Of a stretch of 64,000 nt of DNA, positions 2 through 45,716 are shown in pieces. A model generated the notes under the pieces. That model saw nothing but the letters and a program-made list of their open reading frames with translations. It was not told where the DNA came from and did not search any database. A program made the position numbers and the translations under genes. Location of the stretch: contig RPFO01000253.1 of the NCBI GenBank assembly GCA_009746045.1, positions 2,961,475 through 3,025,474 on the forward strand. Reading direction: 5' to 3'. Within the stretch, counting starts at the first letter, position 1. The number at the start of each line of letters is the position of its first letter. The stretch is from Mesostigma viride (taxonomy: Eukaryota; Streptophyta; Mesostigmatophyceae; Mesostigmatales; Mesostigmataceae).

Positions 2-1855
2 GCCAGCGTGCCGGTCTCATGCTTCAGTTCTTCAGCCGGGGCTGCACGCCTCAACCCTTCCGCGGCTGCGGGCGTGGTGGAGGTCAGCATGGTGGAGGTA
101 CGGGCGGCGGGCTCATCGGCGTGGGACAAGCATCGGACGGTGCTGCCCCAGCCAACGGCGAGCATTGCCAAGATGCGCACGCAGTGGTCGCTGGATGCTG
201 TGACGTCCACGCGGCAGCTGGCTATGCGCAAGCGGGTAACTGAAGCCGTCATCACCATTCCTCAGATGGCCAGCCATGGCCTCACTTTGCTGCAACCGGG
301 TGTCTCGGAGGCCCAAGGTAATTTTTCTGCTGCAATCTTACCGCAGGCCCCTGATTTTGCCAAGGGTGCGGTAGTGTTGGAACTGTTTGCGGGGATCGGA
401 GGGGGCATTGCAGGCTTTTTGGCCGCAGGCGGCGTGTGCCGTAAACTCATCGCGGTAGAGCCATCGCACAAGGCGCGTCAGGTGTACTTCAGTCACTGTG
501 GCGTGTTGTCGCGAGAGTATCCCGCGCAGTTTCCGCCATCAGCATGGCGTGACCCGTTTGGGGAATGTCCTCAAGATATCCGAGCCATCGGTGAGGTGCA
601 GGTGCAGCAGTTGTTGCGCAGGCATCATGCCATCGACTTGGTAATTGCGGGTTGGGAGTGCCAGGGCCTGAGCCAGGCAGGGCAAGGGCGGGGGCTAGCC
701 GATCCGCGTAGCGCGCTGTTCTGGGAACTGTTGCGTGTGGTGGGACTGTTGCAGTCGCGTCAGCCCCATCCGCCTGCGTATCTGTTTGAGAACGTTGTGG
801 CGGGTGACAGCCCACATCAGGCGGTGCGGGAGGACTGGGCTACAATCGTGGCACTCCTGGGGGAGCCCATCGTGTGTGACAACGCAGGGCTGGGTGGGCT
901 CACGCATCGTTTGCGTGCCTATTGGACCAACGTGGCGTGTGCGACCGATGTGCAGGCGGTCTTGGGGGCCGTAGCAAGGCAGCATCCGAGTGTGTCTGCG
1001 GAGGTAGCATTGCCTTCCCACCTAGTCACGCAGAAGGTGGATAGCGAGGATCGCCCACCGTATGCACGCGTCAACCGGGTCGGGAGCCCCATGTGTGCAC
1101 TGCCGACCCTGGTCAGTTACCAAGGGTCGACAGCATACCGTGATCGGGGTAAGGGTCTCGTTTGGGACACTACCACCGGTCTGTTGGTGCAGCCACCCGC
1201 AGAATTTCGTGAGGCCAGCATGGGTTTTCATGTCGGGGCCTCGGCGCTGCCGGGCGTGCTCGAGAGTGAGCGCTGGTCTTTGATAGGCCAGGCTATGTCG
1301 GTGTTGCAGGTCGGGTATGTGCTGCTTGCATCGGTTGCCGTGCGCCAGTCTGGGGGGGCGTCCCCAGCCAATCCGCCTCAGCAGGTTGAGGCGCGCGCAG
1401 CCAAACTGAAGCGCCCTGCAGCGACGGGGACTTCATCAGCATGGGGGTGGCGTCTGCGACAGGTGTGGACTATCATTCTCATGACCGCCCTGCTGACCAG
1501 CACCGTGCTGGCCGGCGAGCCCACGCTGCATCGGGTAATACACCGTGCGGCACGCGAGGCTCCGGCGGTGGGTGTCACACCAGGCGTGGCAGCCTTTTCC
1601 TTGTTCCACGACGATGCGGCTAGGGCGCCGCATCTTGAGGCACATGCGGTAGCTGTGGGTGATCCCGCGGATACGCACCCCTGGGCTATTGGCGAACACC
1701 TTTCTGATGCGCAGCGCTCAGCCATGCTAAAGTGGCTAGGCACTGCAAGGGGGGCCTTCGCTTTCACAAGTGATGAACTGGGGTGTTTCAATGGTGGGAC
1801 CATGCGTGTTCCATTGGACACTGACACCCTTTGTTCCGACGCCAGCATCGCCTGA
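2..1855 (+). CDS. DNA (cytosine-5) methyltransferase domain in a gypsy polyprotein (5' end outside window)
   Basis: The frame is open from the window edge, so the start is not visible. Counting residues from base 8, motif I (LELFAGIGGG) is at about 123-132, motif IV (GWECQGLSQ) has the catalytic Cys at 218, motif VI (ENV) has Glu at 261, a motif VIII-like R-L-R is near 301-303, and motif X-like LIGQAM is near 425. A target-recognition stretch lies between VIII and X, so the catalytic core looks complete. The usual Pro before the catalytic Cys is Glu. After the enzyme come a linker with a hydrophobic segment (about residues 487-505) and FAFTSDELG, which is the usual sequence just before a gypsy RT. 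The domain therefore belongs to the retrotransposon polyprotein. It would transfer methyl groups from S-adenosylmethionine to cytosines in DNA. The frame ends 25 bases into the RT frame, so a -1 shift is needed. Confidence 0.88.
   Translation, partial: ASVPVSCFSSSAGAARLNPSAAAGVVEVSMVEVRAAGSSAWDKHRTVLPQPTASIAKMRTQWSLDAVTSTRQLAMRKRVTEAVITIPQMASHGLTLLQPGVSEAQGNFSAAILPQAPDFAKGAVVLELFAGIGGGIAGFLAAGGVCRKLIAVEPSHKARQVYFSHCGVLSREYPAQFPPSAWRDPFGECPQDIRAIGEVQVQQLLRRHHAIDLVIAGWECQGLSQAGQGRGLADPRSALFWELLRVVGLLQSRQPHPPAYLFENVVAGDSPHQAVREDWATIVALLGEPIVCDNAGLGGLTHRLRAYWTNVACATDVQAVLGAVARQHPSVSAEVALPSHLVTQKVDSEDRPPYARVNRVGSPMCALPTLVSYQGSTAYRDRGKGLVWDTTTGLLVQPPAEFREASMGFHVGASALPGVLESERWSLIGQAMSVLQVGYVLLASVAVRQSGGASPANPPQQVEARAAKLKRPAATGTSSAWGWRLRQVWTIILMTALLTSTVLAGEPTLHRVIHRAAREAPAVGVTPGVAAFSLFHDDAARAPHLEAHAVAVGDPADTHPWAIGEHLSDAQRSAMLKWLGTARGAFAFTSDELGCFNGGTMRVPLDTDTLCSDASIA
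1825..1855 (+). other. Overlap and -1 frame change between methyltransferase and RT frames
   Basis: The methyltransferase frame stops at 1853-1855. The RT frame is open only from 1825, after a stop at 1822-1824. The protein before (…PLDTDT) and after (RRQHRLSQ…) matches one continuous gypsy RT leader, so a -1 change must occur in these 31 bases. I see no classical X-XXY-YYZ heptamer in the correct phase. It may be an unusual frameshift site, a small indel or a sequencing error. Confidence 0.6.
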
Positions 1856-4800
1856 GTCAGGCCGAGTTGGATTTTGTAGCCGAGCAATGCAAGGAGTTAG
1901 AGGATGCCGGTATCATCAGGCAATCTTCCTCCAGCTATGCCGCTGCCGTTGTCGTTGCGCCCAAGAAGGACGCTATCACCGGGGCATGGACGGGTATGCG
2001 CATGGCCACCGATCTGCGGTTGCTGAATGCACACACACCCGTGGACCGTTACCCCATGCCACGTGTGGATGATGTCCTGGATAAGATATCTCCTCATGTG
2101 AAGTTTGTGTCCTCGCTGGACCTGCGTAGCGGCTTTCATCAGATCGCAGTTGCGCCGGAGGATCAGCGGAAGCTTGCATTCTGGGGGGGCGGCAATTTGT
2201 ATGAGTGGGTGCGCATGCCCTTTGGGCACCGCAACGCTAGTGCTGTTTTCCAACGAGCTATGGACAAAGTGCTTGCAGGTCTTCCTTTCGCCGCTTGTTA
2301 CATTGATGATGTAATCGTCTTTAGCGCGACATTTGAGGAGCACCTGGCGCACTTGGAGCAGGTTCGCTTGGCTCTCGAGGAGCATAATATGCGGCTGCAC
2401 CCTGAGAAGTGCAAGTTCGCCCAGCGGACCCTCTCATTCCTTGGTCATCAGATTGTGCCGGGTGGCCGGACGCCTGATGCCGCCAAGGTCGAATCCATTG
2501 TGCAGGCCGCCGTACCCACGGATGTCTCAGGGGTGCGGGCGTATTTGGGTTTGGCTGGCTATTACCGAGGTTACATTGAGAACTTCAGCAGCAAGGTGAA
2601 GCCCTTGACCGAGTTACTCAAGAAGGGGTGCGTGTGGGCGTGGGGTCCCGCACAGCAACGCGCCATCGAGACAATCAAGCAGGAGCTCACGTCGGCCCCG
2701 ATTCTGCGCGCCCCTGACTATGCTTTGCCGTTTGTGTTATATACCGACTGGTCCAAGGTAGGACTGGGTGCGGTCTTGGCGCAAAAGGATGGTGATGGGC
2801 GCGAGCACGTTATTGCTTATGCTAGTCGCAGCAACAACCCAGCGGAGAGCCGGTATTCTTCCTATGAGGGGGAGGCACTGGCTGTGGTGTGGGCCATCAA
2901 GCACTTTCGCCCGTATTTAGTTGGGCGCGTGTTTACTCTGGTGACAGACCACCAGCCGCTTCAGTGGCTAATGACCAACACCAACCTGACGGGTAAGCTC
3001 GCCCGATGGGCCATGATTATCCAGGAGTACCACATGACCATTGTGCATCGGGCCGGCAAGGACCATGTCAACGCCGATGTGCTATCCCGATACGCCATGC
3101 CTACCACTGTTGACCACACTGGAGCCCGGGCCATGGGTGCCGAGGGCTCGTCGGGTTCTGTGGTCTTTGTGAACGCTGCTGGGTATGCGGCCGACGATGA
3201 GGAGGAGGCGTGGTGGCGCAGTGTCGAGTACTCTGTGGCGGACTTCGGCATCAGCGACGACCCGGTGCGGCCGTCGCCATTCACGCCATCCAAAGCTGTG
3301 TGCGCTATGGAAGAGGGTAGGTCTCTGTCCTTTGACATTGATCCTTCTCTGCAGCAGCTGATCGCTGTGCAGGCTCTCTTAGCGCGTAGCTCTCTTGCTG
3401 ATTGCTACACCGCTGATATCTGGCTAGATGGTCGAGTTTTGGAGCAAGTGCAGGGTGCTGTCTTGACTCCTACTCCAGTCGATTGGACTCCTGCTCAGAA
3501 GGCGACGGAGTTGAACAGGGTGCAGCACAGGGCTGCAACCTATGGTTGGGAAGATGGGGTTTTGTACAAGCTGTTGGGCAAGCGTAGGGTGGTCGTCCCA
3601 CCGCCTGACAAGCGCGTTGCTATAGTGCAGGCGTACCACGAGCGGTATGGTCACTTGGGTGGCAATCGCACGCTCAGCCTCGTACGGACCAGCTATTGGT
3701 GGAATAACATGCGACACACAGTGGCCCAGGTAGTGGCCAGCTGTGTCCCGTGTGCTCGAACCAAGGCTAACTTTAGCGCAGATCATGGTGCCAAGGAGCT
3801 GATGTCGCTTCCCATCAAGGGCTTGTTTTATCGCTGGCACGTCGATCTGTGCGGGCCGTTTCAGGAGAGCCCTGACGGCAACCTCTATGTCATGGTATGC
3901 GTGGAGAGCTTTAGCAAATGGGTTGAGTTGATCCCCATTGCTGACAAGCATGCCGCTACCACAGCGAAGCATTTTGCAGACATCATCACCAGGTTTGGGG
4001 CTCCCGCGGAGGTAGTCACGGACCAGGGTGGTGAGTTCAGGGGTGAGTTCCAGGAGTTGCTGGATGGATGTCTTATTGATCACCGTCGCACTTCTCGGGA
4101 GCATCCTCAGGCCAATGGTTTGGCTGAGAGATTGGTGCAGACCGTCAAGCAGGCGCTGCGCAAGTGGAGCCTGCAGGTGCCGGAGTCGGCCAGGTGGGAT
4201 CGCGAGTTGGCATGGATTGCCATGGGTTATCGCATGTCTCCCCAGGAGTCTCTCGCTACCTTCTCCCCGTATTTCCTTCTGTTCGGGCGTAATCCTCTTT
4301 TGCCTACGGAGGCACAGGTTGCGCACCCCGAACCCATGGCCTTCGACAACGCTCAGCAATTTTTGGTTGAGGTGCTGGCCAGGGCAGAGACTTTTAAGAA
4401 GGTCATGCCCATCGCGATGAACAACTTGTTCATTGCTCAGCACAGGGACTCCCTGCGTTACGCTCAGCGCCGGGGGGGCGCATACATGGCTCGCCAGCTG
4501 CGGTTTAGGCCAGGGCAGTATGTTTTCCTGCGCACTCAGCTGAAGCACACTTTGGATGTGGAGGCGGGGCCCACCATTTTGCGCATTGTGGCTATCAAAC
4601 CATCGGGAGTGGCAATTTTGGAGGGCGCCGACGGGAGCCGTACGACAGACAACCTCAGCAATCTCAGTCCCTGCTCACTGCCCAATTTGGTCCACGACCT
4701 CCAACCGCACACATCTCGCCGAGTCAAGGACGCCCAGTGTCAGGTTTGTCACCGGGTCGATCAGGCGGAGTCCATGTTATTGTGTGATCAGTGTAACTGT

Positions 4801-4950
4801 GGTTGGCACATGCAGTGCTTGCAGCCCGTGGTCACCAGCATTCCGGAGGGGGATTGGTTTTGTCCAGTGTGCACCGCTGCGCAGTTTACCTCCCGCAGCT
4901 TGACTGCGGTCACCGCTGCCCTTGTCTTGGTACGATCGCTGTCTTCGTGA
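1831..4950 (+). CDS. Gypsy I pol: reverse transcriptase, RNase H, integrase, C-terminal PHD finger
   Basis: This 1,039-residue frame has no ATG at its start and is read through from the upstream frame. RT occupies about residues 10-200, with DLRSGFHQI and the catalytic YIDD at 157-160. RNase H covers about 300-420 with Asp in YTDWSKVGLG, Glu in YEGEALAV and Asp in VTDHQPL. The integrase HHCC zinc site begins near 604. The DDE residues are in VDLCGP (about 672), VTDQGG (about 730) and GLAERL (about 765). After the integrase C-terminal domain there is no chromodomain. Instead a full C4HC3 PHD finger lies at about 970-1017 (CQVC…CDQC…GWHMQC…CPVC). All catalytic motifs are intact. The PHD probably binds histone tails and could steer integration, by analogy with chromoviral chromodomains (inference). 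Confidence 0.93.
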   Translation: MFRRQHRLSQAELDFVAEQCKELEDAGIIRQSSSSYAAAVVVAPKKDAITGAWTGMRMATDLRLLNAHTPVDRYPMPRVDDVLDKISPHVKFVSSLDLRSGFHQIAVAPEDQRKLAFWGGGNLYEWVRMPFGHRNASAVFQRAMDKVLAGLPFAACYIDDVIVFSATFEEHLAHLEQVRLALEEHNMRLHPEKCKFAQRTLSFLGHQIVPGGRTPDAAKVESIVQAAVPTDVSGVRAYLGLAGYYRGYIENFSSKVKPLTELLKKGCVWAWGPAQQRAIETIKQELTSAPILRAPDYALPFVLYTDWSKVGLGAVLAQKDGDGREHVIAYASRSNNPAESRYSSYEGEALAVVWAIKHFRPYLVGRVFTLVTDHQPLQWLMTNTNLTGKLARWAMIIQEYHMTIVHRAGKDHVNADVLSRYAMPTTVDHTGARAMGAEGSSGSVVFVNAAGYAADDEEEAWWRSVEYSVADFGISDDPVRPSPFTPSKAVCAMEEGRSLSFDIDPSLQQLIAVQALLARSSLADCYTADIWLDGRVLEQVQGAVLTPTPVDWTPAQKATELNRVQHRAATYGWEDGVLYKLLGKRRVVVPPPDKRVAIVQAYHERYGHLGGNRTLSLVRTSYWWNNMRHTVAQVVASCVPCARTKANFSADHGAKELMSLPIKGLFYRWHVDLCGPFQESPDGNLYVMVCVESFSKWVELIPIADKHAATTAKHFADIITRFGAPAEVVTDQGGEFRGEFQELLDGCLIDHRRTSREHPQANGLAERLVQTVKQALRKWSLQVPESARWDRELAWIAMGYRMSPQESLATFSPYFLLFGRNPLLPTEAQVAHPEPMAFDNAQQFLVEVLARAETFKKVMPIAMNNLFIAQHRDSLRYAQRRGGAYMARQLRFRPGQYVFLRTQLKHTLDVEAGPTILRIVAIKPSGVAILEGADGSRTTDNLSNLSPCSLPNLVHDLQPHTSRRVKDAQCQVCHRVDQAESMLLCDQCNCGWHMQCLQPVVTSIPEGDWFCPVCTAAQFTSRSLTAVTAALVLVRSLSS

Positions 4951-4965
4951 TGGGGCCGGTCGCCA

Positions 4966-4978
4966 GCGAGGGGGGGAA
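4966..4978 (+). promoter_or_regulatory. Polypurine tract of gypsy I (putative)
   Basis: A G-run followed by AA lies just before the repeat starting at about 4,979. This is the expected position for the plus-strand primer next to the 3' LTR. Confidence 0.5.
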
Positions 4979-6260
4979 TCATGGGACAGGTCCTCGCCCA
5001 CCCCACAGGGCATGCAGTTAAGGCAGGCACATCAGCTCAGCTCATTTGGGTTTTACCAAATTAAGCTGAGTGGCCAGCCGCCATGGTGGCGCCGGAGATT
5101 GTGGCACGCAGACGCGACAGCTGTCACGGACGCGCGCTATGTCATCCGGGCGCCCACTATGCACAAGACCGGTGACGTGCGCAAGGAATTTGTCTTCTAC
5201 GCATTTTCGACAAAGGCTAGTGACCGGGGGGGACACTAGCACTTGCAGCATAAGAGCGGACGAAAGTGTACGTGCACGCGCGCCGGGCCAGGCACAGCTG
5301 GGCGCGCAGCACTGACTTGAGCGGACGGCAGCACAAGTGTGCAGCGTCGAGAGGATCATACGCGTGTTAGTGGACAGCTGGAGCTGAAGCTGGACTGCTG
5401 GACTTCAACAGCGCCGAGGCTATTGACAGGCCAGGTGTCTTTGTGGTGTAGAATAGCGGGTCAACGTTATGAGGACTGGACAGAAAATGGAAAAGGACAA
5501 TTTGCGGTGCGGAGCCAGATCGCTGGAATGAATGCGAAATCGCTGGCAGCCCTAAAAAGGGATTTCTTCTAGAAAGGAACGATTAGACGCAATGTTTGCT
5601 GGGCCACTCACACGCAAGGTGTGAGCGTGCAGATTGTCTGAAGGATATTATGCTTCGACCTTGCTGGACGTGACTCAATGTCGGACATTCCCAGGGACAG
5701 AAATGCCGGAGCCTCTAGGAGATGAGATCGGCAACAGGGTAGCAATTTAGATTTGTCGGGATGCCTTCCTGCTTTTGTTGGCATGTGTGGTAGAAAGCCA
5801 GGACGGCAACTGGAATGCGGTTTCTATTCGCATGGTTCAGGCAGCAAGATAGTTTTGGCATTCCTGGCTGGACTGACAAGTGTGGCGTGTGTCATGCGTG
5901 TGGCATGACGAATGGTTTGGTTCATAGTCGAAGAGGACTCTCACGCAGCGTGTAGTCTCTTCGAGTCTCTCGTTAGTGGCCTTCGTGTTTCTCCCTTTCC
6001 TTGGGAGCAAGGCCGGTAGCATGTCATGGAGCGCTGCCTAACTGCGGGCTCGTGAGCATGGAGTGCATCGATATTGAGACTATCAACGTGTTGTAATTGT
6101 ATTAACTTTCTCAATAAACTCCGCATGTGCGGCTTCATCATCAGACTGTGCAAAGTGTGTGTTTTGAAAGCATTATTCTATAGCAGGGGAGGCAATAAGG
6201 TGGTTATCAGGCACGAGGGACAGTTCCTTGTCCTCGGCTGAGAGCCCTCCTTTCTTTAAT
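4979..6260 (+). repeat. Putative 3' LTR of gypsy I
   Basis: The region follows the polypurine tract and has no convincing ORF. Its first 140 bases recur at 6,261-6,400. An AATAAA lies near 6,112, as expected for the LTR poly(A) signal. The 5' LTR is outside the window, so LTR ends cannot be confirmed and the length of about 1.28 kb is only an estimate. Confidence 0.5.
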
Positions 6261-6400
6261 CATGGGACAGGTCCTCGCCCACCCCACAGGGCATGCAGTT
6301 AAGGCAGGCACATCAGCTCAGCTCATTTGGGTTTTACCAAATTAAGCTGAGTGGCCAGCCGCCATGGTGGCGCCGGAGATTGTGGCACGCAGACGCGACA
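6261..6400 (+). repeat. Second copy of the first 140 bases of the gypsy I LTR
   Basis: Bases 6,261-6,400 match 4,979-5,118 almost perfectly by eye, from ATGGGACAGG to ACGCGACAG. The copy then changes abruptly into LINE sequence. It could be a second, truncated LTR or a template-switch 5' end on the LINE. Confidence 0.8.
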
Positions 6401-9400
6401 GGGTGTACTCCATTCACGGGCGCGCTCAGCACGCGCGCGCCTGTGTTGCTCAACGGCCCCTCAACCGGCCAGCAGTCCCGGCCCCCTCCCCCCCTCCCGC
6501 CTCGGCTCCCACCGGCTCCCAGCCCCCGCCGCCCGACTACTCGGCCAGTTGGCGTTGGCTTGACACGGTTCCCTGGGATGCATGCGCCATCAACCCGACG
6601 TCTACCCTGACCGACCTCCCCCACCGCGCGCGTAGCCTTTTCGCGCAATGTGCAATCGCTTCTCTCCGGCGCATGCACGCCGCTCCGGACGACCCGCTTG
6701 GCTTTAAACTGCACATGGTGACCCCCCGCCTGCTCCTCACCCCTCTCGGGCGTGGTGTGCGCGGCCTCCAGGGTGCGGTTATTGCCCGTTGCCGACGCTT
6801 TCTGCAGGGGGACTGGGAGGGGCTGTTTGACGTGCCGCCCCCGCGCACGGCCCGGCTGTCGGGGGAGGTCAACTTCGAGCGGGTGGCCGCCGACGTCATC
6901 CGCCTCGTCCGCGAGGGGCAGCTCAGCCGGGCCATGACCCGCTTGGAAATGGCCAAGCTGGCCCCCGCCAATGCGGCTACCCTGGCGGCCTTGGAGGCTC
7001 TTCACCCTGCGGAGCCCGGATTCCAGCTGCCCGTGCCGGACCCCCTGCCGGCCCCCCTCCGGCTGGACCGCGACTGCTTCCTGGAGGTGATGCGTGCGGT
7101 CCCGCGGGCTTCCTCTACCGGGCCGTCGGGCTGGCGCTACGAGCACTTGGAGGTCCTGGTGGGGCATGGGGGCGAGGACATTCTCTTTGACACCCTCATT
7201 GACCTGGCGGCTGGTCGCGTTCCTCCCGCTGCGCGCGAGTGGTTAGCGGGCGCTCGCCTCCTCGCTCTGCTCAAGGGTGTCTTGCCCCCCCCGAGGGCAA
7301 GGTGCGCCCGATCGCCTGCGGTGAGGTGCTCCGCAAGCTCGTGGGCAAAGTGATCTGCCGCCAAAAGGCGCCCGAGCTCCGTGCCTTTTTCTGCCCGCCC
7401 CTCGCAGCGGGTGAGACCTCGGTGGCGGCCCAGCTGGGGGTGACGACTCCAGGCGGGGCGGATATCCTCATCCATTCGGTGCAGGCCTACCTCGAGGCCC
7501 ACCCCACCCACGCTGTCGTCAAGGTCGACTGCCACAACGCGTTCAACAGTCTGTCCCGCGCCAGCATGTTTGCGGCCGTCATGGAGTCCTTCGAGGACTT
7601 GTACGCTTGGACAGCCGTGTGCTACGGCCAGCCCGGCCAACTGGTTCACATCATGGAGGACGGCACTCGCGGCGGCCTGCTGTCGCGGACGGGCACCCAG
7701 CAAGGGGACCCCCTGGGACCCCTGTACTTTGCCGCCCCCCTCCAGGGTTGCCTCCAAGCGGTCCATGCTGCCCACCCGGCGGTCGCTATTCAGGCCTACT
7801 TGGATGATATCTACCTTCTGGGCCCTGTGCCGGACACCACCGCGGCTCTGCTGGCACTGCAGACCGCGGTGGCCGACATCAACCTCCAGTTGACCCTGGC
7901 CAAGTGCGCGGTGTACTCGCCCCAAGGTGATTGCTCCGGCTTTCCGCCCCAGCTCTTGGGCCGGGACGAGCGCCTCCATGGGTTGGATGTCCTCGGCGTT
8001 CCGGTTGGCGACCCCGCGTTTGTCATCGATGCTCTGCGGGCCGCCCTCGAGGCACGCACTGAGGTACTGCCCTTGATTGCGCGCCTTCATGATTCGCAGA
8101 CCAAGGGTCTGCTTCTGTGGTTTTGCGCTTACCCTCGCGTCGTTCACTGGCTCTGGGGCGCTCTTCCCGGGCTCAGGTCCGGCTGGCCGCCGAGGGCCAC
8201 GACGAACGCATCCAGTCGGCCTTGGCGCAGCTGGTCCCGGGCCCCGACCTCCCGCCACATGCTATTCGCATTGCCTCCCTGCCTGCACGGATGGGTGGCT
8301 GTGGTCTGACTCGTGCCGCCCGGCTGGCCCCAGCAGCATTTTTGGGCTCCGTCGCTCAGTCGTGGGCGGAAAGCTGCCGGCTCCTGCCCCTTTTGGCAAC
8401 GGCAGCGCCTGACCTCCTGGACCCCAGCAACCCCTTGCCCTTCGTCACTGCCATCCAGGAGGCCTATGCTGAGATCCAGCAGGCCTGTTCTCCCGTCCGT
8501 GCCGCTCAGGCGGTACAGCGCCACCTCCCTCGCGGCACTCCCTCGGTCGCCTCCGTTCAATCTCCCGCCGCATTCCCTGCTCGCGTCATCGATAAACACC
8601 AGAAAACCTACGCGGGTATTCTTCTGCACACGGCTGATTGGATTGCTCTTTTCGCGGACCTCAACGCCCAGGGACGTGCGTGGCTGTTCTCGCTTTCCTT
8701 GCGGAGTGTGGGCTCGGCGTACCTTCATGCTCTTCCCATGGCCCCCCCATTCGCCTTGGCTCCCAGCCACTATACTCGGTGGCGCTCCGGCACCAGCTAT
8801 TTGCCCCGCAGCCTCTTGTTCCGGCCGGGCGGCCTTGTGGTAGCTGTGGGCAGCCGCTGGATCCCACGGGGACTCACTACCTTTCCTGCATGGGGGGCCA
8901 ACAGAATCAGAATTGGTATTTGTATTTGCACACTGTCCTCCTGACGGTGGTGCTCGCCATGATTCGGTCGGTTTTCCCCCACGCGAACATCCGGTCCGAG
9001 GATGCGGATGGCGCTGCCTTCTATTCCCCCAACCACCGGCCTGACATCGTGGTGCTGGACTTTGAGGGGGTGGCCGGCATCTGCTTATCGACGTTTCGGT
9101 GGCGCGGCCCTTGGCTCTTAGCCACGTGGCTGGGGCCTCCCTCACGGCAGGTTACACGGCGGACCGGGCGGAGCGGGCCAAGCTCCTGGCCTACGGCGAC
9201 GTCGGGCACCATCGTGTGGTGCCCTTTGTCCTGGAGGAGTTTGGGGCTATGGGGCCCCTGACCTCCGCCTTCTTCAAGGAGTGTTGCCGGCTCCGGGAGG
9301 ACCGGCTGGACCTGGAGGGCCAGCGGGCCTCATGGTCGGCGCGGACCTGGACGTCATATTGGCGTCAGCGCTTGTCGGTGGCGCTGACTCGGGCCATGGC

Positions 9401-9597
9401 TGACATCATGCTCCGCCGTACGCGGGCTGATTTTGCGGTGCAGCAGGGTTATTAGGTTCCTCCCGTTAGGCGTTTCCATTGGTCTTATCGTAGTATAGAG
9501 ATTTGACATGGCTCTGTATAGAGGTTTATAGCTGGGCGTTTGCTTTGGTTTGAGTGATTTCACTCTGCTGTAAGTAATTATATTATTAAATATATAT
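6401..9597 (+). mobile_element. Family-1 LINE copy A (5'-truncated, R2-like endonuclease type)
   Basis: The copy starts inside the second C2H2-like finger (VYSIHGRAQH) of the family-1 protein and runs through RT and endonuclease to the AT-rich 3' tail (CTGTAAGTAATTATAT). It matches longer copy E at 47.4-52.6 kb. It ends tail to tail with copy B. Confidence 0.85.
6402..9455 (+). pseudogene. Family-1 LINE RT and restriction-like endonuclease, frame-broken
   Basis: The N-terminal RT part is open to 7,353. The RT core continues in another frame from about 7,290, after a run of eight C. The core has QGDPLGP near 7,700 and the catalytic YLDD near 7,798. Compared with copies E and G, further small indels occur near 8,160, 8,620, 8,773 and 9,070, so the endonuclease region is split over frames. 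Its zinc motif, PD…D catalytic region (HRPDIVV…LLIDVSV) and C-terminus ending QQGY remain recognisable. The protein would nick DNA and prime reverse transcription of the LINE RNA, but this copy is probably inactive. Confidence 0.8.
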
Positions 9598-11049
9598 ATT
9601 AAAAATATAATTACTTACAGCAGAGTGAAATCACTCAAACCAAAGCAAACGCCCAGCTATAAACCTATATACAGAGACATGTCAAAGCTCTATACTACGA
9701 TAAGACCAATGGAAACGCCTAACGGGAGGAACCTAATAGCCCTGCTGCACCGCAAAATCAGCCCGCGTACGGCGGAGCATGATGTCAGCCATGGCCCGCG
9801 TCAGCGCCACCGACAAGCGCTGACGCCAATATGACGTCCAGGTCCGCGCCGACCATGGGGCCCGCTGGCCCTCCAGGTCCAGCCGGTCCTCGATCCCGGA
9901 GCCGGCAACACTCCTTGAAGAAGGCGGAGGTCAGGGGCCCCATGGCCCCAAACTCCTCCAGGACAAAGGGCACCACACGATGGTGCCCGACGTCGCCGTA
10001 GGCCAGGAGCTTGGCCCGCTCCGCCCGGTCCGCCGTGTAACCTGCCGTGAGGGAGGCCCCAGCCACGTGGCTAAGAGCCAAGGGCCGCGCCACCGAAACG
10101 TCAATAAGCAGATGCCGGCCACCCCCCTCAAAGTCCAGCACCACGATGTCAGGCCGGTGGTTGGGGGAATAGAAGGCAGCGCCATCCGCATCCTCGGACC
10201 GGATGTTCGCGTGGGGGAAAACCGACCGAATCATGGCGAGCACCACCGTCAGGAGGACAGTGTGCAAATACAAATACCAATTCTGATTCTGTTGGCCCCC
10301 CATGCAGGAAAGGTAGTGAGTCCCCGTGGGATCCAGCGGCTGCCCACAGCTACCACAAGGCCGCCCGGCCGGAACAAGAGGCTGCGGGGCAAATAGCTGG
10401 TGCCAGAGCGCCACCGAGTAGTGGCTGGGAGCCAAGGCGAATGGGGGGGCCATGGGAAGAGCACGAAGGTACGCCGAGCCCACACTCCGCAAGGAAAGCG
10501 AGAACAGCCACGCACGTCCCTGGGCGTTGAGGTCCGCGAAAAGAGCAATCCAATCAGCCGTGTGCAGAATACCCGCGTAGGTTTTCTGGTGTTTATCGAT
10601 GACGCGAGCAGGGAATGCGGCGGGAGATTGAACGGAGGCGACCGAGGGAGTGCCGCGAGGGAGGTGGCGCTGGACCGCCTGAGCGGCACGGACGGGAGAA
10701 CAGGCCTGCTGGATCTCAGCATAGGCCTCCTGGATGGCGGTGACGAAGGGCAAAGGGCTGCTGGGGTCCAGGAGGTCAGGCGCTGCCGTTGCCAAAAGGG
10801 GCAGGAGCCGGCAGCGACTTTCCGCCCACGACTGAGCGACGGAGCCCAAAAAGGCTGCTGGGGCCAGCCGGGCGGCACGAGTCAGACCGCAGCCACCCAT
10901 CCGTGCAGGCAGGGAGGCAATGCGAATAGCATGTGGCGGGAGGTCGGGGCCCGGGACCAGCTGCGCCAAGGCCGACTGGATGCGTTCGTCGTGGCCCTCG
11001 GCGGCCAGCCGGACCTGAGCCGGAAGAGCGCCCCGGAGCCAGTGAACGA
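9598..11049 (-). mobile_element. Family-1 LINE copy B (5'-truncated, inverted against copy A)
   Basis: This minus-strand copy begins with the AT-rich 3' tail a few bases after the tail of copy A. It is truncated at about 11,048 in an (AT)n stretch. It covers the thumb/linker and endonuclease part of the protein. With copy A it forms an inverted repeat with arms of about 1.4 kb and almost no spacer. Confidence 0.85.
9785..10969 (-). pseudogene. C-terminal part of family-1 LINE protein (endonuclease)
   Basis: About 394 residues stay open, from the region after the RT through the CCHC zinc motif (CGSCG…THYLSCMGG) and the PD…D nuclease motif. A small insertion near 9,893 (TCGATCC where other copies have TCC) shifts the last 40 or so residues out of the family frame. 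There is no RT domain, so it cannot function on its own. Confidence 0.75.
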
Positions 11050-17570: not shown

Positions 17571-17600
17571 TTAGATTTTTGATCATTTACTTAAACAAAA

Positions 17601-19260
17601 ATGGATCCAATGGGTGGTAACCTGTCGCCTATACCTACCAATACTCCTACTATGAATAATAATAATAATAATAATAATAACAACCATAACAACAATCGGG
17701 GTAACCGACGGGACTCACTTGAAACGGTACACCATCTCACTCCTCAAGGTAATCTTCGTGCCTCACCTCCTTCTCCGCTTGCTGATGGTCGCCGTCGTCC
17801 CTCACTTACCCCTCCTACCTATGAACAACGTCAACGTATGCAAGTCAGATTTAGTGATGACCCTTCCCTTACCCTGAACCAGGCCCCTGCCCCTCCTGCA
17901 ACCTTGGCTCAACCCTCCAGCAGGTCCTCACTAACTAACAATGTTTTTAGGCCTCCTTCCCACCCTGTTCCTTCCATGCCTGCTCTTAACACGGGTCGTG
18001 CCTCTGCCCCTGTCGGTCCTTCTGGGCGCCCTAGTGCAGTTCCCTTTTACCCACCTGCTTCCTGGTCCTACCCTGAGACGGCCTATGAGGCAGCCCAGGT
18101 CCCTACCCGTGTGGCTGATTTAGAAGTTAATAGTGATTTCAGCACCATGCCCTTAGATGACAGAAATTATGATCATTTTGCCTATTCCTCTCTTCGTGAG
18201 CAATATACTGTCCCCTTCTCTTATGGGCACCAGCCTGAAACGGTGGCCCCGTCTAGACCCCTACCCAAGACTTTTCCTCTTCCTTCCTTCTATCCCGCTT
18301 ATGTAGCAGTGGAAGCTAGTGGCCCTATGGGAAAAACTGACTCTTCTAATCCCCCTAAGCCCCCTGCTCTTCCCCTCTTTGCTAACCTTCCCAAGCTGGA
18401 TGTCAAGTCTACCCCTCAACAGTTTTTCACCTTTATTATGTTGCTTACACAGAACACGGAGTCGTGGCAGAATCATAATAGATGGCGTCTTTCTGATGCT
18501 GTATTAGTTCCTCACTATCTCACAACCTGTATTACTCCTGAGCTTGCTAACCTCATTCAGTGTGAGTCTTTGGCCTCTCATGCCTACCCTAACTCTGTAG
18601 CAGAATTGTTTAAGCGTTTAGAGAACCATTTAGTCCCTCCTGATTCAGATTGGCAGGATAGATTAGCCTTTGGTACCTTGCAGCAGGGTACTAAATCATT
18701 TAAGGAGTATATGAAAGAGTTTGATGCTCAGATGGTACGAATTAGGGATTTGTCGGGTGCAGAAGTACGTGCTCGCTTCCTCCAAGGCCTCAGTAGACCC
18801 TTATTACGTGAAGTCAAGCGCCAGTTCTCTGCCTACCGTTTTACTGATCTGCCCCTCAAGCATGTGCGCCAGCATCTCTTGCGTGTAGCAGATTTCTTCA
18901 CCACCCTTCTCTTCCTACCCGTTCCCGTATTAATAATATTATCCTTACCCCTGAGGAGGAGAACTCCTATGTAGAAGAATTAGATATCTGTGTTACTGAC
19001 CTTTCAGCCCTTGATGTCTCTCATATCACATGCTATCATTGTAAGGAAGTAGGTCATCTTAAACGTGAGTGCCCCAAGTTCCTTTCGGGTGCTCCCCCTC
19101 ATCCCGACGCTCGCCCTCCTCGTACCCCTCAGCGTGCTCCTATTCGTCCTACTTCAGGACGCATTCCTTCAGCTACCCCTAGTAGGCTGAATGCTGTGCA
19201 GACAGGATCCCCAGGGTTCCCCTATGATAATCAGGCTCCCGCACCCTCTTCTCCCTCGTG
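17601..19260 (+). pseudogene. Gypsy II gag (frameshifted before the zinc knuckle)
   Basis: The ATG at 17,601 has a good context (AAAATGG). The first frame gives 457 residues: an Asn-repeat and Pro-rich N-terminus, then a retrotransposon gag domain (about 275-425) containing WQDRLAFGTLQQ and FLQGLSRPLLREVK. It ends at 18,974. The natural continuation lies in another frame, with a CCHC zinc knuckle (CYHCKEVGHLKREC) at 19,031-19,072 and a Pro/Arg-rich tail ending at 19,260. A -1 change between about 18,860 and 18,960 is needed. Such a shift before the knuckle would remove RNA binding, so it is probably a mutation and not programmed. Confidence 0.8.
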
Positions 19261-19463
19261 ACCCTCCAGCAGTGGCTTTTCCGCCAGGGTCTTCTTCGGG
19301 GTTAGTTCCTATGGATTTGGGGGGGAGGGGGAACAGTAGGCCTGTCAGCCGGGGGTAACCTGGACAGGTCCTTAGATAGTACCCCAGATAAAATTTTTGC
19401 CTGCCTGTTTTTATAACCTCTGTAGGAGCTGAATCTTCCCTACCACTACGTGTGCGTCCTCTT

Positions 19464-21833
19464 ATGTTCTTGAATGGTGGTTTAACCGTCCCTCACACTG
19501 TTGTAGACCCCTTCTTGCATGCTGATGAACTCTTGAATGTCTCTGTGTTGGTAGATAGCGGTGCGGCTAGCTCCTTTGTGAGCGAGGCCCTAGTTAGACG
19601 TTTAGGACTAGTCCCTACCCCTCACACCAAACCCGTTACTGTTCATTATGCTGATGGTCGCACCAGTCATTCCCCGGGTACGGTGTCCCTTCCCATGGTT
19701 ATACAAGGACGTACTGTCAACCTGACGGCCACTATAGGCCCTATCACTACCGCTGATGTATTACTAGGATTAGATTGGCACCAGGATAATAAGATTACTA
19801 TTAATTATGATACCATGGTCATTTGGTTTCCAGATAGCTCTTACTGGGTACCTGAACGTCATTATAGATTGGAAAATTTATCCTTGGTAGATATTACTCC
19901 TCCTACACCTGTTGATCCTCCTGTAAGACCTATACCTGAAGTATTAATGTCAAATGACGAATTACGTTCTGAATTAAAGCAAAATGGATACCTATTATGT
20001 ATGTTCCTTCAGTTAGAAGTACAAGAGATACCTATCACTAATAATAGTGTGGATATAGATGTAAATACAGTGGATACAATAGGAGTAGGATTTACTGAAA
20101 ATGAAATAGTAAGATACATGGCTGTGATAGATTCCTCAAAAGTATTTGAAGAAAAGACTCCTTCTTATCCTCCTCCTCGTTCTGTTTTACACCGTGTAGT
20201 TATCAAGGACGGTGCAGTTCCTACGCACTCTCCGATGTATAGAATGGGCCCTACCGAGTTAAAGGAACTAAAACAGATTTTAGTGTCATTATTAGAAGCA
20301 GGATTGATAGAGCCTAGTAACTCCCCCTACTCAGCTGGTGTCCTGTTAGTTCCTAAGCCAAATGGCAAGTTTCGCCTAGTTACTGATTATAGGAAGTTGA
20401 ATGATATTACTGTGAAATCTAAATACCCTCTACCTCGTATTGATGATATATTTAATAAGGTTAAAGGTTCCACTTGTTTCACAGTACTGGATTGTGCGGA
20501 TGGTTTTTGGCAGTTGCGGATAGCTCCTGAGGATTGCCATAAAACCGCCTTTGCTACCCCTTTTGGTCATTACCAGTTTAGAGTAGCGGCTATGGGACTC
20601 TGTAACTCGCCTGCCTCTTTTCAAATGTTAATGAATGAAGTGCTTAGACCTGTTATGGGAAATTCTCATCTTCCTCAGGTGTCCTCTGATCTAAAGGATC
20701 CCTCCTTCTCCTCTGTTTCTTTATCTGAGCATGACCGTTCTTGTGCTCAAGCTTACTTAGATGATATTCTTATTTACTCTCCTGATTTTGAAACGCACCT
20801 ACGTGATTTAAAGAAAGTATTAGAAATAATGGCTGAAAATTCTTTGTGGGCGCGCCGTGCTAAAGTGCGTTCGGGTAGGAGTGTCCCATTTTTAGGGCAC
20901 GTTCTGTCAGATGCCGGGGTCGCTACCGACCCGGATAAAACTAAGTCAATTCAGGAATGGCCTACTCCTACCGACGTTAAAGGTGTACGTAGTTTCCTAG
21001 GAATTGCTTCTTACTATAGGCGTTTTATCCCGCGTTTCGCCACTATAGCAGCCCCTATTAATCATTTATTAAAGAAGGATATCCCCTTTGTTTGGAGTAG
21101 TGAGTGTCAGTCTGCTTTTCAGTGCCTAAAATCCCTACTCCTTTCCCCTCCTGTACTCATCCTACCGGATACTACTAAACCCTTTGTTGTGGCTACAGAT
21201 GCTAGTAAAGTAGCTATAGGTGGTGTCCTTCTCCAGGATCAGGGTCAGGGCTTACAGCCAATTGAGTATATCTCTAGGACAATGCTCCCTGCGGAGCGTA
21301 ACTATCCCGTCCACCAGCAGGAACTCTTAGCTGTGGTGTATTGTTGCCACGCGTGGCAGCACTTCCTTAAAGGTGCTCAATTTGATGTCTGCCTGAATGA
21401 ACCCTGTGAGCTAGATCCTTATAGGTTAGTTATCCAAACGGATCATCGTCCCCTTACCCATCTTCTCTCCCAACCCAACCTTACCCCTCGGCAAGCGCGC
21501 TGGATGGAATTTTTAGCACAGTTTTCCCCTTTTAAACTTCAGTATGTCAAGGGTGTAGATAACATAGTACCAGATGCACTCTCTCGTCGTGCAGACTATT
21601 CCTTCTTCGAGGACCTTGATGTTCTCAATACTACTCTAGTTCCTACTACTATGGGTGTAACCCCTTATGGTGAACTACCTGATGATGATTCCTATGCCTA
21701 CCTCTTTCATACAGCTGTTCGCATGCCTGATCTCCTTTCTCACGTAGGACTCTCTCTCCCGTGTGAGGCCCTTCCTGTGGCCTCGGTGGGGGGGAGGGGA
21801 AAAATAAAATTTCTATACCGCTTAGCCATATAG
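19464..21833 (+). CDS. Gypsy II protease, reverse transcriptase, RNase H
   Basis: The frame is open from 19,392; the first ATG is 19,464. The aspartic protease motif VDSGAASSFV is near 19,550. RT motifs include YPLPRIDDIF, LDCADGFWQLRIAPED and catalytic YLDD at 20,754-20,765. Between NEVLRPVMG and YLDD lie roughly 25-30 extra residues (SSDLKDPSFSS…) not usual in this family. RNase H follows (VATDASKVAIGG, HQQELLAVVY, QTDHRPL). The frame stops at 21,833 after a G-rich stretch, and the integrase continues beyond it in another frame. It makes the DNA copy of the element inside virus-like particles. Confidence 0.9.
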   Translation: MFLNGGLTVPHTVVDPFLHADELLNVSVLVDSGAASSFVSEALVRRLGLVPTPHTKPVTVHYADGRTSHSPGTVSLPMVIQGRTVNLTATIGPITTADVLLGLDWHQDNKITINYDTMVIWFPDSSYWVPERHYRLENLSLVDITPPTPVDPPVRPIPEVLMSNDELRSELKQNGYLLCMFLQLEVQEIPITNNSVDIDVNTVDTIGVGFTENEIVRYMAVIDSSKVFEEKTPSYPPPRSVLHRVVIKDGAVPTHSPMYRMGPTELKELKQILVSLLEAGLIEPSNSPYSAGVLLVPKPNGKFRLVTDYRKLNDITVKSKYPLPRIDDIFNKVKGSTCFTVLDCADGFWQLRIAPEDCHKTAFATPFGHYQFRVAAMGLCNSPASFQMLMNEVLRPVMGNSHLPQVSSDLKDPSFSSVSLSEHDRSCAQAYLDDILIYSPDFETHLRDLKKVLEIMAENSLWARRAKVRSGRSVPFLGHVLSDAGVATDPDKTKSIQEWPTPTDVKGVRSFLGIASYYRRFIPRFATIAAPINHLLKKDIPFVWSSECQSAFQCLKSLLLSPPVLILPDTTKPFVVATDASKVAIGGVLLQDQGQGLQPIEYISRTMLPAERNYPVHQQELLAVVYCCHAWQHFLKGAQFDVCLNEPCELDPYRLVIQTDHRPLTHLLSQPNLTPRQARWMEFLAQFSPFKLQYVKGVDNIVPDALSRRADYSFFEDLDVLNTTLVPTTMGVTPYGELPDDDSYAYLFHTAVRMPDLLSHVGLSLPCEALPVASVGGRGKIKFLYRLAI

Positions 21834-21941
21834 CGACTAGGTCAGGAAAGTCTTATGAAAACGTAGTCCCTAGGACCTCCCCTTCTCTTCGGCAAGGCGG
21901 TAGGAGATCTCTTTAAACCTGTTCTGGATACTTCTGTAGCG

Positions 21942-23467
21942 ATGCCTACCTCTGATCTTGAACGCCTTATTAGTAGATTTACGGCCACTGAGCCGGAAGC
22001 ATTAGCTGCCATTGCTGCACATCCCCAACAATTAGGCAAGCACCCTTGTAAATTTGTAGGTGGGTTTTTATATGTGCAGATAGCAGATTCTCCCCCTCAA
22101 TGGCGCCTGTATGTCCCTCCTATCTGTCGCTCCTCCTTGCTCTTTGAGTTGCATGACTTAGCTGCTCACAGGGTGGTAAACGGGTACGGGACCTAGTAGC
22201 CCGCTCTTATTACTGGCCTTCCCTTTATAAGGATGTGGATGAGTATGTTAGAACTTGTCAATCTTGCCAGGAAATGAAACCCAATAATGTAGGACAGATA
22301 GCAGAACCTAGGACCTTGCCTGACCCTATCATGCCTTGGGATTCTATCATGATGGATTTTGTAGGACCTTTTAGAAAGAATGATAGGGGCAATGCCCAAA
22401 TCCTTGTGTTCATAGATCGTTTTACTCGTATGTGCCATCTTGTGCCGTGTCCTTTAGAACTCACCGCACGTGATTGCGCACGCCTATACCTCAATAATGT
22501 ATATAGATATCATGGATTGAGTAGGCAGTTTATTAGTGATAAGGATAAATTATTTACCTCAGATTTTTGGCAGCAGTTTTTCGCTGCCATCGGTACCAAG
22601 GTTACCTACGGTACTGCCTACCACTCCTCCTCCTCTCATTTAGTAGAGCGTCTTAATAGAGTAGTAGAAGAAGCGCTTAGGCACTATGTTAATGGCTCGG
22701 GTAGTGATTGGGAGGATTATTTATGTTTGGTAGAGTTCTCCCTCAACAATTGTCCCCAAGCTGCGCATGGATATACGCCCTTCTTCTTAGATACTGGGAG
22801 ACAGCCCCTTACCCCTACCTCTCTCTTAGCTAGTCCTCTACGGGACAAGGATGATGTGTCCCGAGATACTGTAGAAGGTGTACAGTCCTTACTAGATAGA
22901 ATGAAAACTGCTCATGACCACGCGATCTCAGGGTATCAAAAAGCTCAGGCTAAGTACCTTGCTAGGTTGCGTGCCTCCTTAGATAGACGAGCACCTGAGA
23001 TAGAAGTAGGAGATCTAGTATTAGTAGAAGGCCCCCGTGTTGGCCGTTTTGCTCATAAGTTTGAAGCAGAACTGAAGGTCAAACTTAGGCCTGCCTTCTT
23101 AGGACCCTTCCATGTGTTGTCTAGGGTAGGAAATTTCTTGTATAAAGTCGATATCCCTACCTCTTGGCAAACGCATTCAAACACCTTCCATAGGAGCCAG
23201 CTTAAACTGTACCACCCTAGTACGTTCGCTGGCAGGGAGTTAGCGCCTGCCCCTTTAGAGCATAATCCTGACACTGGGGAAGTAGAAGACGAAGTAGAAA
23301 GCATCGTGGCCCATCGAGATATCAAAAAGGGCCGCGGTACCCAGCGTCAGTATAAAGTGAAGTGGATGTATGCTCGTAGTGAAGTAGATAAGGTTTGGTA
23401 TACGGAGAGTGAGCTAGATGGGTGTAGTCGCCTGCTGCAGGAATATAAAACCCTGCACAAGCTCTAG
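21942..23467 (+). pseudogene. Gypsy II integrase with C-terminal chromodomain (frame-broken)
   Basis: The N-terminal zinc region is split. One frame carries ELHDLAAH (to about 22,180). The next, from about 22,185, carries RSYYWPSLYKD and CQSCQEMK, so an indel near 22,180 separates the two His from the two Cys. The catalytic core follows with Asp in MMDFVGPF, Asp in FISDKDKLF and Glu in HLVERLNR. The last 60 or so residues form a chromodomain (VESIVAHRDIKKG … YKVKWMYAR … VWYTESEL), the hallmark of chromoviruses, which directs insertion to marked chromatin. The core frame 22,235-23,467 is intact. Confidence 0.88.
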
Positions 23468-31704: not shown

Positions 31705-31783
31705 GGTGCGGGGCTTGTGATTTATTGTAATAAACACATGCGTTAGGCCATTGAGCATTGAGAGGTCCATTCGTTTATTAACT
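31705..31783 (+). repeat. 5' LTR of copia element, right part
   Basis: These 79 bases match 42,074-42,152 (GGTGCGGGGCTTGTG … TTTATTAACT). A poly(A)-type AATAAA is near 31,729. Confidence 0.95.
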
Positions 31784-31814
31784 TGAATTAAAGTCGTTTA
31801 CCATAGACAAAATC

Positions 31815-34800: not shown

Positions 34801-35159
34801 AAGAGCAACTGCGTGCAGCACTTGTGATAGCATTGCCCAGATTCTACCCAGTTGACACTATACTGCTTGATCAACAGTTTAGCTGTCTGGCTGAGTGTGA
34901 AGGATGGGATGCTAATATTGAGATTGCTGGATTGCAAGATCATGAAGGGCAGGGTGTCATTGAAAGAACCATCAGGTCAGTCAAAACTTTAGTGGCGAAA
35001 TCCACTGACCTGAAAGCCACATCTGGAAGCTATGCTGACAGAGCACTGTGGTGCAGTGAAATCTGTGCTACACTTAACTCGTCGTCTGTCCCTGGTCCTC
35101 TACGGAGGACTGAGTTGAACTCAGTCCTCTCTAGAGGACCGAGTTTTTGGGTTTCGTAG
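31815..35159 (+). CDS. Copia gag and integrase, one frame (interrupted at 35,077)
   Basis: ATG at 31,815, 31 bases after the LTR. The N-terminal 550 or so residues are rich in Ala, Gln, Lys and Pro with coiled-coil character. A gag-like helical domain follows (about 535-690). A zinc knuckle CTRCGTKGHQRADC begins near residue 792, followed by CFGCKHPRHL. The integrase begins near 900: HIAMGHEVV and CQQCQF form the HHCC site. The core has Asp in VVHIDGEQY, Asp in TILLDQQF and Glu in GVIERTIRS. No protease lies between gag and integrase, which is unusual. True element coding ends at 35,077; the last 27 codons are read from the inserted transposon. Precise removal of the insert (1,722 bases including one TTAA) rejoins the frame with that starting at 36,810. 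Confidence 0.87.
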   Translation: MGDPIMPGLKFKKKRIDDAGWQTVPTVEEKAAAKKIKKARRAQAEQEQLVARQLATAMAQQSVKAAAQERQLAALQKQVTSLAEQAEKSVFSSPASSQKSVSSMRSPSPQASPADLPAKAPSQPPQEEGGIAKSGGEQAGVPIVPSSAQKAGGYERKLKRDAYMFKMRTKKVPGPVIGSIQLSDDEVTLSPGVSDGEIEMNPLNQAVEQAAAQFVEARRLAQQERDRKKTAARNMTAEKQLAAMQAGEVLHERLFNELVVAQGDEGVTLTADQLNSLLLQLTKLQEKMQATETPALPAHTLPTPGTDLSQRVVGGAVSPRVLQGKSQGTVPSSPSKPPSDPDAQELHRRKVVENKLLEAMIAREGGLAAQAAALQQLGQAKGFPTSSGVRQGEQDPAPAAGTPPATALAQQAGTQPPSAEAQQTAPTPGQSDKSKAVAKGTPVDPTPPTLKGDVQELLAILTAQLKTMATNPMDDLSRTQLDGLLASISQLERGRANMEEADLQQAVKTFLAEKKDPVKGTFNPKQKESKIEIPGLPEGYTQEQAKEFLFSLNYCFESLNVQNWFSALRASTTIHRSAPAIKTLVQIYQEKAGTPNLAIALWPAFMDELKHLLVDRTQFESIRGFNWLNAYQVNKQDYATDCKNYRLAVEKDPDLRGLPASYLLYSWLSNANLDKAVYATVVAGLKPLWNDFRAGMNHIQDCLTPLAIGAPSATPTPKVQQTQGKGQGKKRQLGGQQGGQSKKAKGNQPQGQPGQPAQLKPNQWRRPTPPTPAPPTPAPTAQPPHAGPKNKCTRCGTKGHQRADCKWNPAVGDVDLCFGCKHPRHLPPGTWCDRQDKAPKGCTSSQHAYVDLYDLIIIGDKDKGLLDFEAAQKISSTYNVILPYLKALTPAAVDTVDLRELATQLHIAMGHEVVAEKIARRAGGSRLRNAVRLARKHCQQCQFHGPKPPKWHVATPPTQRGIIVGDVVHIDGEQYLILKDTWSRFTVMEPLPGMAKEQLRAALVIALPRFYPVDTILLDQQFSCLAECEGWDANIEIAGLQDHEGQGVIERTIRSVKTLVAKSTDLKATSGSYADRALWCSEICATLNSSSVPGPLRRTELNSVLSRGPSFWVS

Positions 35160-36795: not shown

Positions 36796-36809
36796 TTAAC
36801 CTTAGACCT

Positions 36810-45640: not shown

Positions 45641-45716
45641 ATATATTAAAAAATATAATTAATTAGTTTACAGCATGAGTAAAGGCACCCATGCGAGAGC
45701 CGTATATATATTAAAA
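45641..45716 (-). repeat. Degenerate family-1 LINE tail fragment
   Basis: ATATTAAAAAATATAATTAA and a diverged TTTACAGCATGAGTAAAG resemble the family-1 3' tail. A second TATATATATTAAAA precedes copy C. Confidence 0.6.

What the first reader, a model, noticed from the sequence alone, without database searches (positions are those of the whole stretch)
2..4950. Gypsy retrotransposon whose polyprotein contains a complete cytosine-C5 DNA methyltransferase
Motifs I, IV, VI, VIII-like and X of a C5 methyltransferase lie directly upstream of a gypsy RT leader in the same polyprotein, not in a separate host gene. All RT, RNase H and integrase catalytic residues are also intact. From memory, retrotransposon-borne cytosine methyltransferases have been reported in some algae and dinoflagellates, so the concept is not new, but this placement between the gag/protease side and RT may be. 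The element could methylate its own copies or the host genome, for example to tolerate or exploit silencing.
Basis: partly seen in the sequence, partly recalled or inferred. Interest (0 to 1): 0.92.

Follow-up and report, generated by a model that had tools for sequence, protein, structure and literature searches.

The report
Algal jumping gene carrying DNA methyltransferase
This is part of a virus-like jumping gene, apparently from a green alga, that carries its own DNA-marking enzyme; such elements have been described before, but this one belongs to a family in which the enzyme sits at two alternative places and often has an unusual active site.

Summary
Window 2-6401 holds the right part of a Ty3/gypsy element. 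The association is real: relatives keep protease-MTase and MTase-RT order. In this copy, though, MTase and RT are in different frames; the break lies in a block that relatives read through, so damage or sequence error is likely. The domain is DNMT3/DRM-like, but its catalytic Pro-Cys is Glu-Cys. Gypsy elements with a Dnmt3 in Pol are published (KnitGypsy-Dnmt3, 2018), so the kind is known. Not found in print in my searches: a large PHD-gypsy family (135 proteins examined) with two placements that follow clade: MTase upstream of RT (window's clade) or between RNase H and integrase. Glu-Cys occurs in 35 of 53 rows covering motif IV, and the tree needs several changes. One two-ORF relative (L001) separates gag-PR-MTase from RT by a UAG in the CARYYA readthrough context. 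Best reading: the element methylates its own cDNA or insertion site. Activity is untested; host copies could not be searched.

The parts
2..1855 (+). ORF A, 617 aa, open at the window's left edge: linker after protease, MTase domain, MTase-RT linker; gag and protease would lie left of the window
   Evidence: P0001 aligns from its residue 496, after its protease-like stretch
365..1306 (+). cytosine-C5 MTase domain (ORF A aa 122-435), DNMT3/DRM-like
380..403 (+). motif I ELFAGIGG
   Evidence: translation; alignment
653..664 (+). motif IV W-E-C-Q: nucleophile Cys present, usual Pro replaced by Glu
788..796 (+). motif VI E-N-V
905..931 (+). motif VIII HRLRAYWTN
1825..1855 (+). overlap of the two frames; frame break inside the block conserved before RT
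   Evidence: uninterrupted in P0029, P0058, P0099 and in the start of L001 ORF2
1825..4950 (+). ORF B, 1041 aa: RT-RNase H-integrase-PHD
1960..2454 (+). reverse transcriptase (RVT_1)
2641..3030 (+). RNase H
3598..4107 (+). integrase zinc-binding (H2C2) and core (rve)
4738..4872 (+). PHD finger after the integrase; nearest solved relatives BAZ2B, BAZ2A, KDM5/lid
4968..4976 (+). purine run (polypurine-tract-like) just before the repeat
   Evidence: sequence
4977..5120 (+). 144-nt direct repeat, copy 1 (probable start of a terminal repeat)
6258..6401 (+). 144-nt direct repeat, copy 2, 100% identical; its right end is the left junction of a LINE copy

Best explanation
A copy, broken in frame, of a Ty3/gypsy element from a PHD-bearing family of green algae that carries a DNMT3/DRM-like cytosine methyltransferase. 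In the window's clade the MTase is made together with gag and protease, ahead of RT. It probably travels in the particle and methylates cytosines of the element's newly made cDNA, so that the DNA enters the nucleus already marked, while the PHD finger on the integrase steers insertion to chromatin lacking H3K4 methylation. Shown here: the domains, their conserved association, two placements that follow clade, the Glu-Cys motif. Inferred: cDNA as substrate, activity, PHD targeting, algal host.
For: Domains. MTase in 73 of the 137 sequences of the census (135 proteins plus two window ORFs), next to another retroelement domain in 69 of the 73 and the only detected domain in 4 (window ORF A, P0003, P0008, P0021). 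MTase tree and integrase tree split the same way. Cys of motif IV kept in 50 of 53 rows that cover it, among sequences mostly 31-41% identical. Nearest solved MTases of the family profile are DNMT3A, 3B, 3C and DRM (60 of 203 and 60 of 121 matches shown). De novo CG methylation by two retrotransposon DNMTs of the DIRS class was shown in yeast (PMC5890265 section 10). PHD closest to BAZ2B and BAZ2A; that these read unmodified H3K4 is recalled.
Against: The Glu at motif IV could weaken or change catalysis. The K. nitens gypsy DNMT gave no methylation in yeast, called inconclusive by its authors. Three rows have lost the Cys (P0103, P0066, P0135), so activity is not always kept. Searched alone, the window's MTase finds DRM, HaeIII and HhaI in the PDB but not DNMT3A/3B at E<=1. 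This copy has a frame break. No expression, methylation or dN/dS data were available.
Confidence: 0.55

Rival explanations
1. The MTase acts mainly on the host genome or on the site of insertion (with the PHD finger as chromatin reader), self-silencing each new copy so the host tolerates the element.
For: Related ideas are discussed by de Mendoza et al..
Against: In L001 the MTase sits in the gag-protease ORF, apart from the RT-integrase ORF, so one polypeptide need not hold both.
Confidence: 0.2
2. The domain is a nucleic-acid binder or decoy with little or no methylation activity, as the catalytic Pro is Glu in many members and some members lost the Cys.
For: Glu in 35 of 53 rows covering motif IV, Cys lost in 3.
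Against: Cys, ENx and the motif VIII block are kept in most rows that cover them among sequences mostly 31-41% identical; E and P forms alternate on the tree.
Confidence: 0.17
3. Chance neighbour: a host MTase gene interrupted by, or misassembled with, a gypsy element.
For: Different frames in this copy.
Against: P0001, Mesostigma P0002 and L001 keep protease then MTase (the protease profile was cut from P0001 itself); P0029, P0058 and P0099 keep MTase then RT in one ORF.
Confidence: 0.03
4. The frame change at 1825-1855 is a programmed frameshift that sets the ratio of gag-MTase to RT.
For: Two overlapping ORFs near the MTase / RT boundary; another element of the clade (L001) has a stop codon near there.
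Against: It lies inside a protein block that relatives read uninterrupted, and I saw no slippery heptamer in the phase of the upstream frame (reading, no program run).
Confidence: 0.05

Closest known systems
KnitGypsy-Dnmt3 of Klebsormidium nitens (de Mendoza et al. 2018, PMC5890265; section 5 part 1 and sections 9, 10, 11 read, not the whole text, figures or supplements)
   Same: LTR Gypsy element with an unrearranged Dnmt3-type MTase in Pol; repeats described in the Fig. 4 legend as DIRS-like, compatible with the 144-nt repeat pair here
   Different: I had no K. nitens sequence to compare; a search of the main text for PHD, chlorophy, Volvox and Mesostigma found none; motif IV variants and clade-specific placements are not mentioned in the parts read
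SymbioDIRS-Dnmt3 and SymbioLINE-Dnmt of Symbiodinium (same paper)
   Same: retrotransposon-borne DNMT; for DIRS in the Pol ORF with RT
   Different: tyrosine recombinase or LINE machinery, not a DDE integrase
Chromoviruses (gypsy with integrase chromodomain)
   Same: histone-reader-type domain at the integrase C-terminus; one such element lies in this window (17595-23467)
   Different: PHD instead of chromodomain, and an MTase
Animal DNMT3A/3B, plant DRM
   Same: nearest solved MTases to the family profile; DRM nearest for the window alone
   Different: Pro-Cys at motif IV; DRM is circularly rearranged (its motif I-IV part lies C-terminal), this is not; the family forms its own branch

Membership tests
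Ty3/gypsy LTR retrotransposon | RT-RNase H-integrase order with H2C2 and DDE core | tested here: met
Ty3/gypsy LTR retrotransposon | gag and aspartic protease upstream | tested here: inconclusive
   outside the window; in P0001 a protease match below cut-off (E 0.034 and 0.043) and DSG by reading; in P0015 zinc knuckle above, protease below cut-off; in L001 by reading
Ty3/gypsy LTR retrotransposon | two LTRs, primer-binding site | tested here: inconclusive
   144-nt repeat pair on the right only, ending at a LINE junction; left end not in window
C5 cytosine methyltransferase | motifs I, VI, VIII, X region and catalytic Cys | tested here: met
   Pfam match covers the N-terminal third of its profile only
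C5 cytosine methyltransferase | Pro-Cys dipeptide of motif IV | tested here: not met
   Glu-Cys in the window; 35 Glu, 14 Pro, 1 Ser, 3 without Cys among 53 rows covering it, 20 rows not covering it
DNMT3 clade | closest to DNMT3/DRM, unrearranged motif order | tested here: inconclusive
   DNMT3A best solved MTase for family profiles and P0021, absent from the list for the window alone; own clade 100/98 beside DNMT3A plus four phage MTases, with one DNMT3 row only
KnitGypsy-Dnmt3 | descent from the same MTase-bearing gypsy | not testable with these tools
DIRS order | tyrosine recombinase | tested here: not met
   DDE integrase, no tyrosine-recombinase family match in ORF A or B

The most novel reading that the evidence does not exclude
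A green-algal gypsy lineage carries an epigenetic reader-writer kit, a DNMT3-like writer with a repeatedly re-evolved Glu-Cys active site and a PHD reader of the BAZ2B type on the integrase, and has moved the writer between two sites of its polyprotein: next to gag-protease (probably high dose, in some elements set apart from RT by a leaky UAG stop) or next to integrase. The Glu-Cys form would be a second working version of the C5-MTase active site, perhaps tuned to cDNA or RNA:DNA hybrid.
Probability: 0.2. Interest if true: 0.82.

Novelty: new variant of a known kind. Interest (0 to 1): 0.6.

Why it matters
Retroelements that write the mark normally used to silence them test ideas about host-transposon conflict. 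Here the trait appears as a family rather than an oddity, with two placements and natural Pro/Glu active-site variants, which makes dose, timing and chemistry comparable between related elements. It also gives a natural test of whether the motif IV proline, present in all 20 related viral loci examined, is really required.

Tried and rejected
Host genome search for further copies, left end and dN/dS: not completed. Structure prediction: switched off, so no fold search. Viral contigs with the patterns [IVF]AGWECQ and [HY]RLRA[YLF]WT: 28 stretches, none a relative; with patterns that allow W[EP]CQ: 30 stretches, 20 relatives, all 20 with WPCQ. Phage records: 256 with a tblastn match to P0021, four fetched as outgroups. 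A conserved membrane helix before RT: 5 of 26 linkers pass hydropathy 1.6, and the window's does not stand out from shuffles (p 0.25); dropped. Coupling of motif IV Glu with motif VI (P rows 13 of 14 ENV, E rows 8 of 34 ENV) is strong in raw counts, but only 3 independent pairs exist and they give no support, so it may be shared descent. Rfam on the window: none. Paper searches for algal DNMT-gypsy or PHD-gypsy; among the listings only PMC5890265, PMC12344493 and PMC6338049 were opened as bearing on it. Searches (DIRS-like repeats; readthrough) were listings, of which only PMC3542737 was opened.

Full report
1. What is there. The window opens inside a retroelement. ORF A (2-1855, frame 2, open to the left) encodes 617 aa; ORF B (1825-4950, frame 1) encodes 1041 aa. 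Pfam finds DNA_methylase in A (E 6.7e-12, 45.9 bits against a cut-off of 22) and RVT_1, RT_RNaseH, Integrase_H2C2, rve and PHD in B, all above cut-off. A second gypsy element in the same window (17595-23467) has protease and RT in one ORF without an MTase match, and a chromodomain instead of a PHD, a useful contrast.

2. The frame. In this copy they are in different frames, overlapping at 1825-1855. The overlap falls in the block leading into RT, which reads without a break in P0029, P0058 and P0099, where MTase and RT share one ORF. By eye I saw no slippery heptamer in phase. Damage or a sequence error is the simplest reading; a programmed shift is unlikely.

3. Relatives. One search with ORF A gave 4 proteins: P0001 (97-99% identical; its gene model leaves the window's sequence near its C-terminus, and its MTase match covers positions 1-270 of 317), P0002 of Mesostigma viride, P0003 and P0004. 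P0001's source is blanked; I infer another copy in the window's own or a near genome, since it differs from the window at a few residues. One search with an alignment gave 19. One search with ORF B residues 590-1030 gave 375 at E<=1e-10, of which 120 were listed. In all 135 proteins were examined; the 255 unlisted ones were not. Rows with a named host: Haematococcus lacustris P0014 (MTase present), P0023 and P0046 (none detected); Volvox africanus P0044 (none detected); V. reticuliferus P0066 and Astrephomene gubernaculifera P0135 (MTase without the motif IV Cys); Mesostigma P0002 (MTase present). P0048 is named after a Spirochaetia MAG. The window is inferred to be green algal; it was not named to me.

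4. Two placements. A census with profiles that I built from these same sequences (the protease profile was cut from P0001) found the MTase in 73 of 137 rows. RT-RH-MT-IN order, complete, occurs in 24 rows (22 of them with PHD); 39 further rows have the MTase next to IN or after RH in shorter ORFs; 3 have MT before RT in one ORF (P0029, P0058, P0099); 3 have PR then MT; 4 have MT as the only detected domain. In the integrase tree of 127 rows (quick method, SH-aLRT only) a 30-row branch (94; 27 of the rows at 97) holds the window and the three type I rows, and none with MT between RH and IN. Outside it, 26 of 28 rows that cover RH to IN have the MTase there; P0109 and P0116 do not. A careful tree of 44 chosen rows keeps the split at 98/91. 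The MTase tree of 49 rows (the 73 less those under 60% coverage or without motif IV Cys) separates 8 rows, the type I set plus the lone P0021, from 41 type II rows at 100/99 (its bootstrap had not settled). So placement and MTase travel together. In the 25 window-clade rows that cover RH to IN without a detected MTase the ORF begins at most 178 residues before RT, so absence is not shown; P0028 starts in what reads as the MTase tail.

5. A DNA relative. The one locus found in prokaryote genomes (L001; record titled cyanobacterium MAG, which I take for an algal contaminant) has gag-protease (by reading) and MTase in ORF 3-3491 and RT-RNase H-integrase from 3492, same frame, separated by a UAG followed by CAATCA; the stored stretch ends before a PHD could be seen. 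This fits UAG-CAR-YYA, the readthrough consensus of tobamoviruses (PMC3542737, one passage seen). With equal bases such six letters occur once in 512; it is one case, noticed after the fact. ORF2 is 92% identical to P0041, a cluster of 226 sequences whose ORF begins five residues after that stop, so two-ORF elements with the MTase in ORF1 may be common. Readthrough is not shown.

6. The enzyme. By sequence the nearest solved MTase is tobacco DRM for the window alone (E 5.6e-5, then HaeIII and HhaI; DNMT3A/3B not listed at E<=1), and DNMT3A for P0021 (1.5e-8) and for family profiles (3.7e-19; 7.6e-18). In a 35-row tree (window and 19 of the 72 MTase-bearing proteins, L001, 9 of 20 viral loci, 4 of 256 phage records with a match, one DNMT3A fragment) the family is one clade at 100/98, next to DNMT3A plus the four phage enzymes (93/88), and these together stand apart from the other viral enzymes (100/99). 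There type II is one clade (100/99) while type I is not resolved as one, so type II may have arisen from within type I. One capture, later moved within pol, is the simplest history; two captures from one source are not excluded, and whether the donor was cellular or viral is open. DNMT3A scored higher against the four phage enzymes than against the family, which speaks against a simple 'stolen host Dnmt3'.

7. Motif IV. Of 73 MTase rows, 20 do not cover motif IV; of the 53 that do, Glu-Cys 35, Pro-Cys 14, Ser-Cys 1, Cys lost 3. On the tree, built without those columns, the trait needs 6 changes (bootstrap 5-7; starred branches force 2 to 3). All 20 viral relatives found with a pattern that allowed E or P have P, and so has L001. 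That Pro-Cys is nearly universal in C5 MTases is recalled. The window has Glu together with ENV, as few Glu rows do (8 of 34).

8. PHD and ends. The PHD finger matches BAZ2B best (E 3.2e-16), then BAZ2A, KDM5 lid, WSTF, ATXR5. That BAZ2B, BAZ2A, KDM5 and ATXR5 PHD fingers read unmodified H3K4 is recalled. After ORF B a purine run (4968-4976) is followed by a 144-nt stretch repeated exactly at 6258-6401. This suits the DIRS-like repeats noted for KnitGypsy-Dnmt3 (legend) or two abutting LTRs, but copy 2 ends where a LINE begins, so the element's end is unknown.

9. Known or new. Gypsy with Dnmt3 in Pol is published (PMC5890265: section 5 part 1 and sections 9, 10, 11 read). A 2025 survey (PMC12344493: passages and section 5 read) repeats it and, differing from the first paper, speaks of Copia. 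PMC6338049 (passages) cites it and names green algae and charophytes among hosts of DAM- or DCM-encoding gypsy and DIRS elements. The searches named in Tried and rejected found no report of this family, its placements or the Glu-Cys variant; most subscription papers, preprints and supplements were not open to me. Verdict: new variant of a known kind.

Noticed in passing
window 6401-11049 and 45683-56000: Several copies of one LINE family (96-99% alike over 0.9-3.2 kb), one pair forming a long near-perfect palindrome (arms about 8140-9589 and 9599-11049, 96-100% complementary in pieces).
   Followed up: partly
window 49692-52608, - strand: The upstream LINE reading frames carry a RING finger (Pfam 5.4e-11) and the second half of a PHD finger (E 2.1e-4, under its cut-off); the PHD half resembles that of the gypsy element (55% over 27 aa).
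   Followed up: partly
window 17595-23467: A gypsy element with gag, protease, RT, RNase H, integrase and chromodomain in three ORFs.
   Followed up: no
window 31782-41336: A probable copia-like element (RVT_2 in 36771-39026, E 3e-9) with a long upstream ORF without Pfam match at E<=0.001.
   Followed up: no
P0066 (Volvox reticuliferus), P0135 (Astrephomene), P0103: Elements with the MTase next to integrase whose MTase has lost the motif IV Cys: the domain persists but looks dead.
   Followed up: partly
P0010, P0012, P0013, C-terminal parts: Beyond the integrase these polyproteins share a further region that reads like another SAM-dependent methyltransferase; seen by eye only.
   Followed up: no
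P0009; also P0018, P0061, P0075: A G-patch domain lies between MTase and integrase in P0009; it is listed without position for P0018, P0061 and P0075.
   Followed up: no
L001 and P0048: Records named as bacterial MAGs (Synechococcales, Spirochaetia) hold these elements, probably algal contamination.
   Followed up: partly
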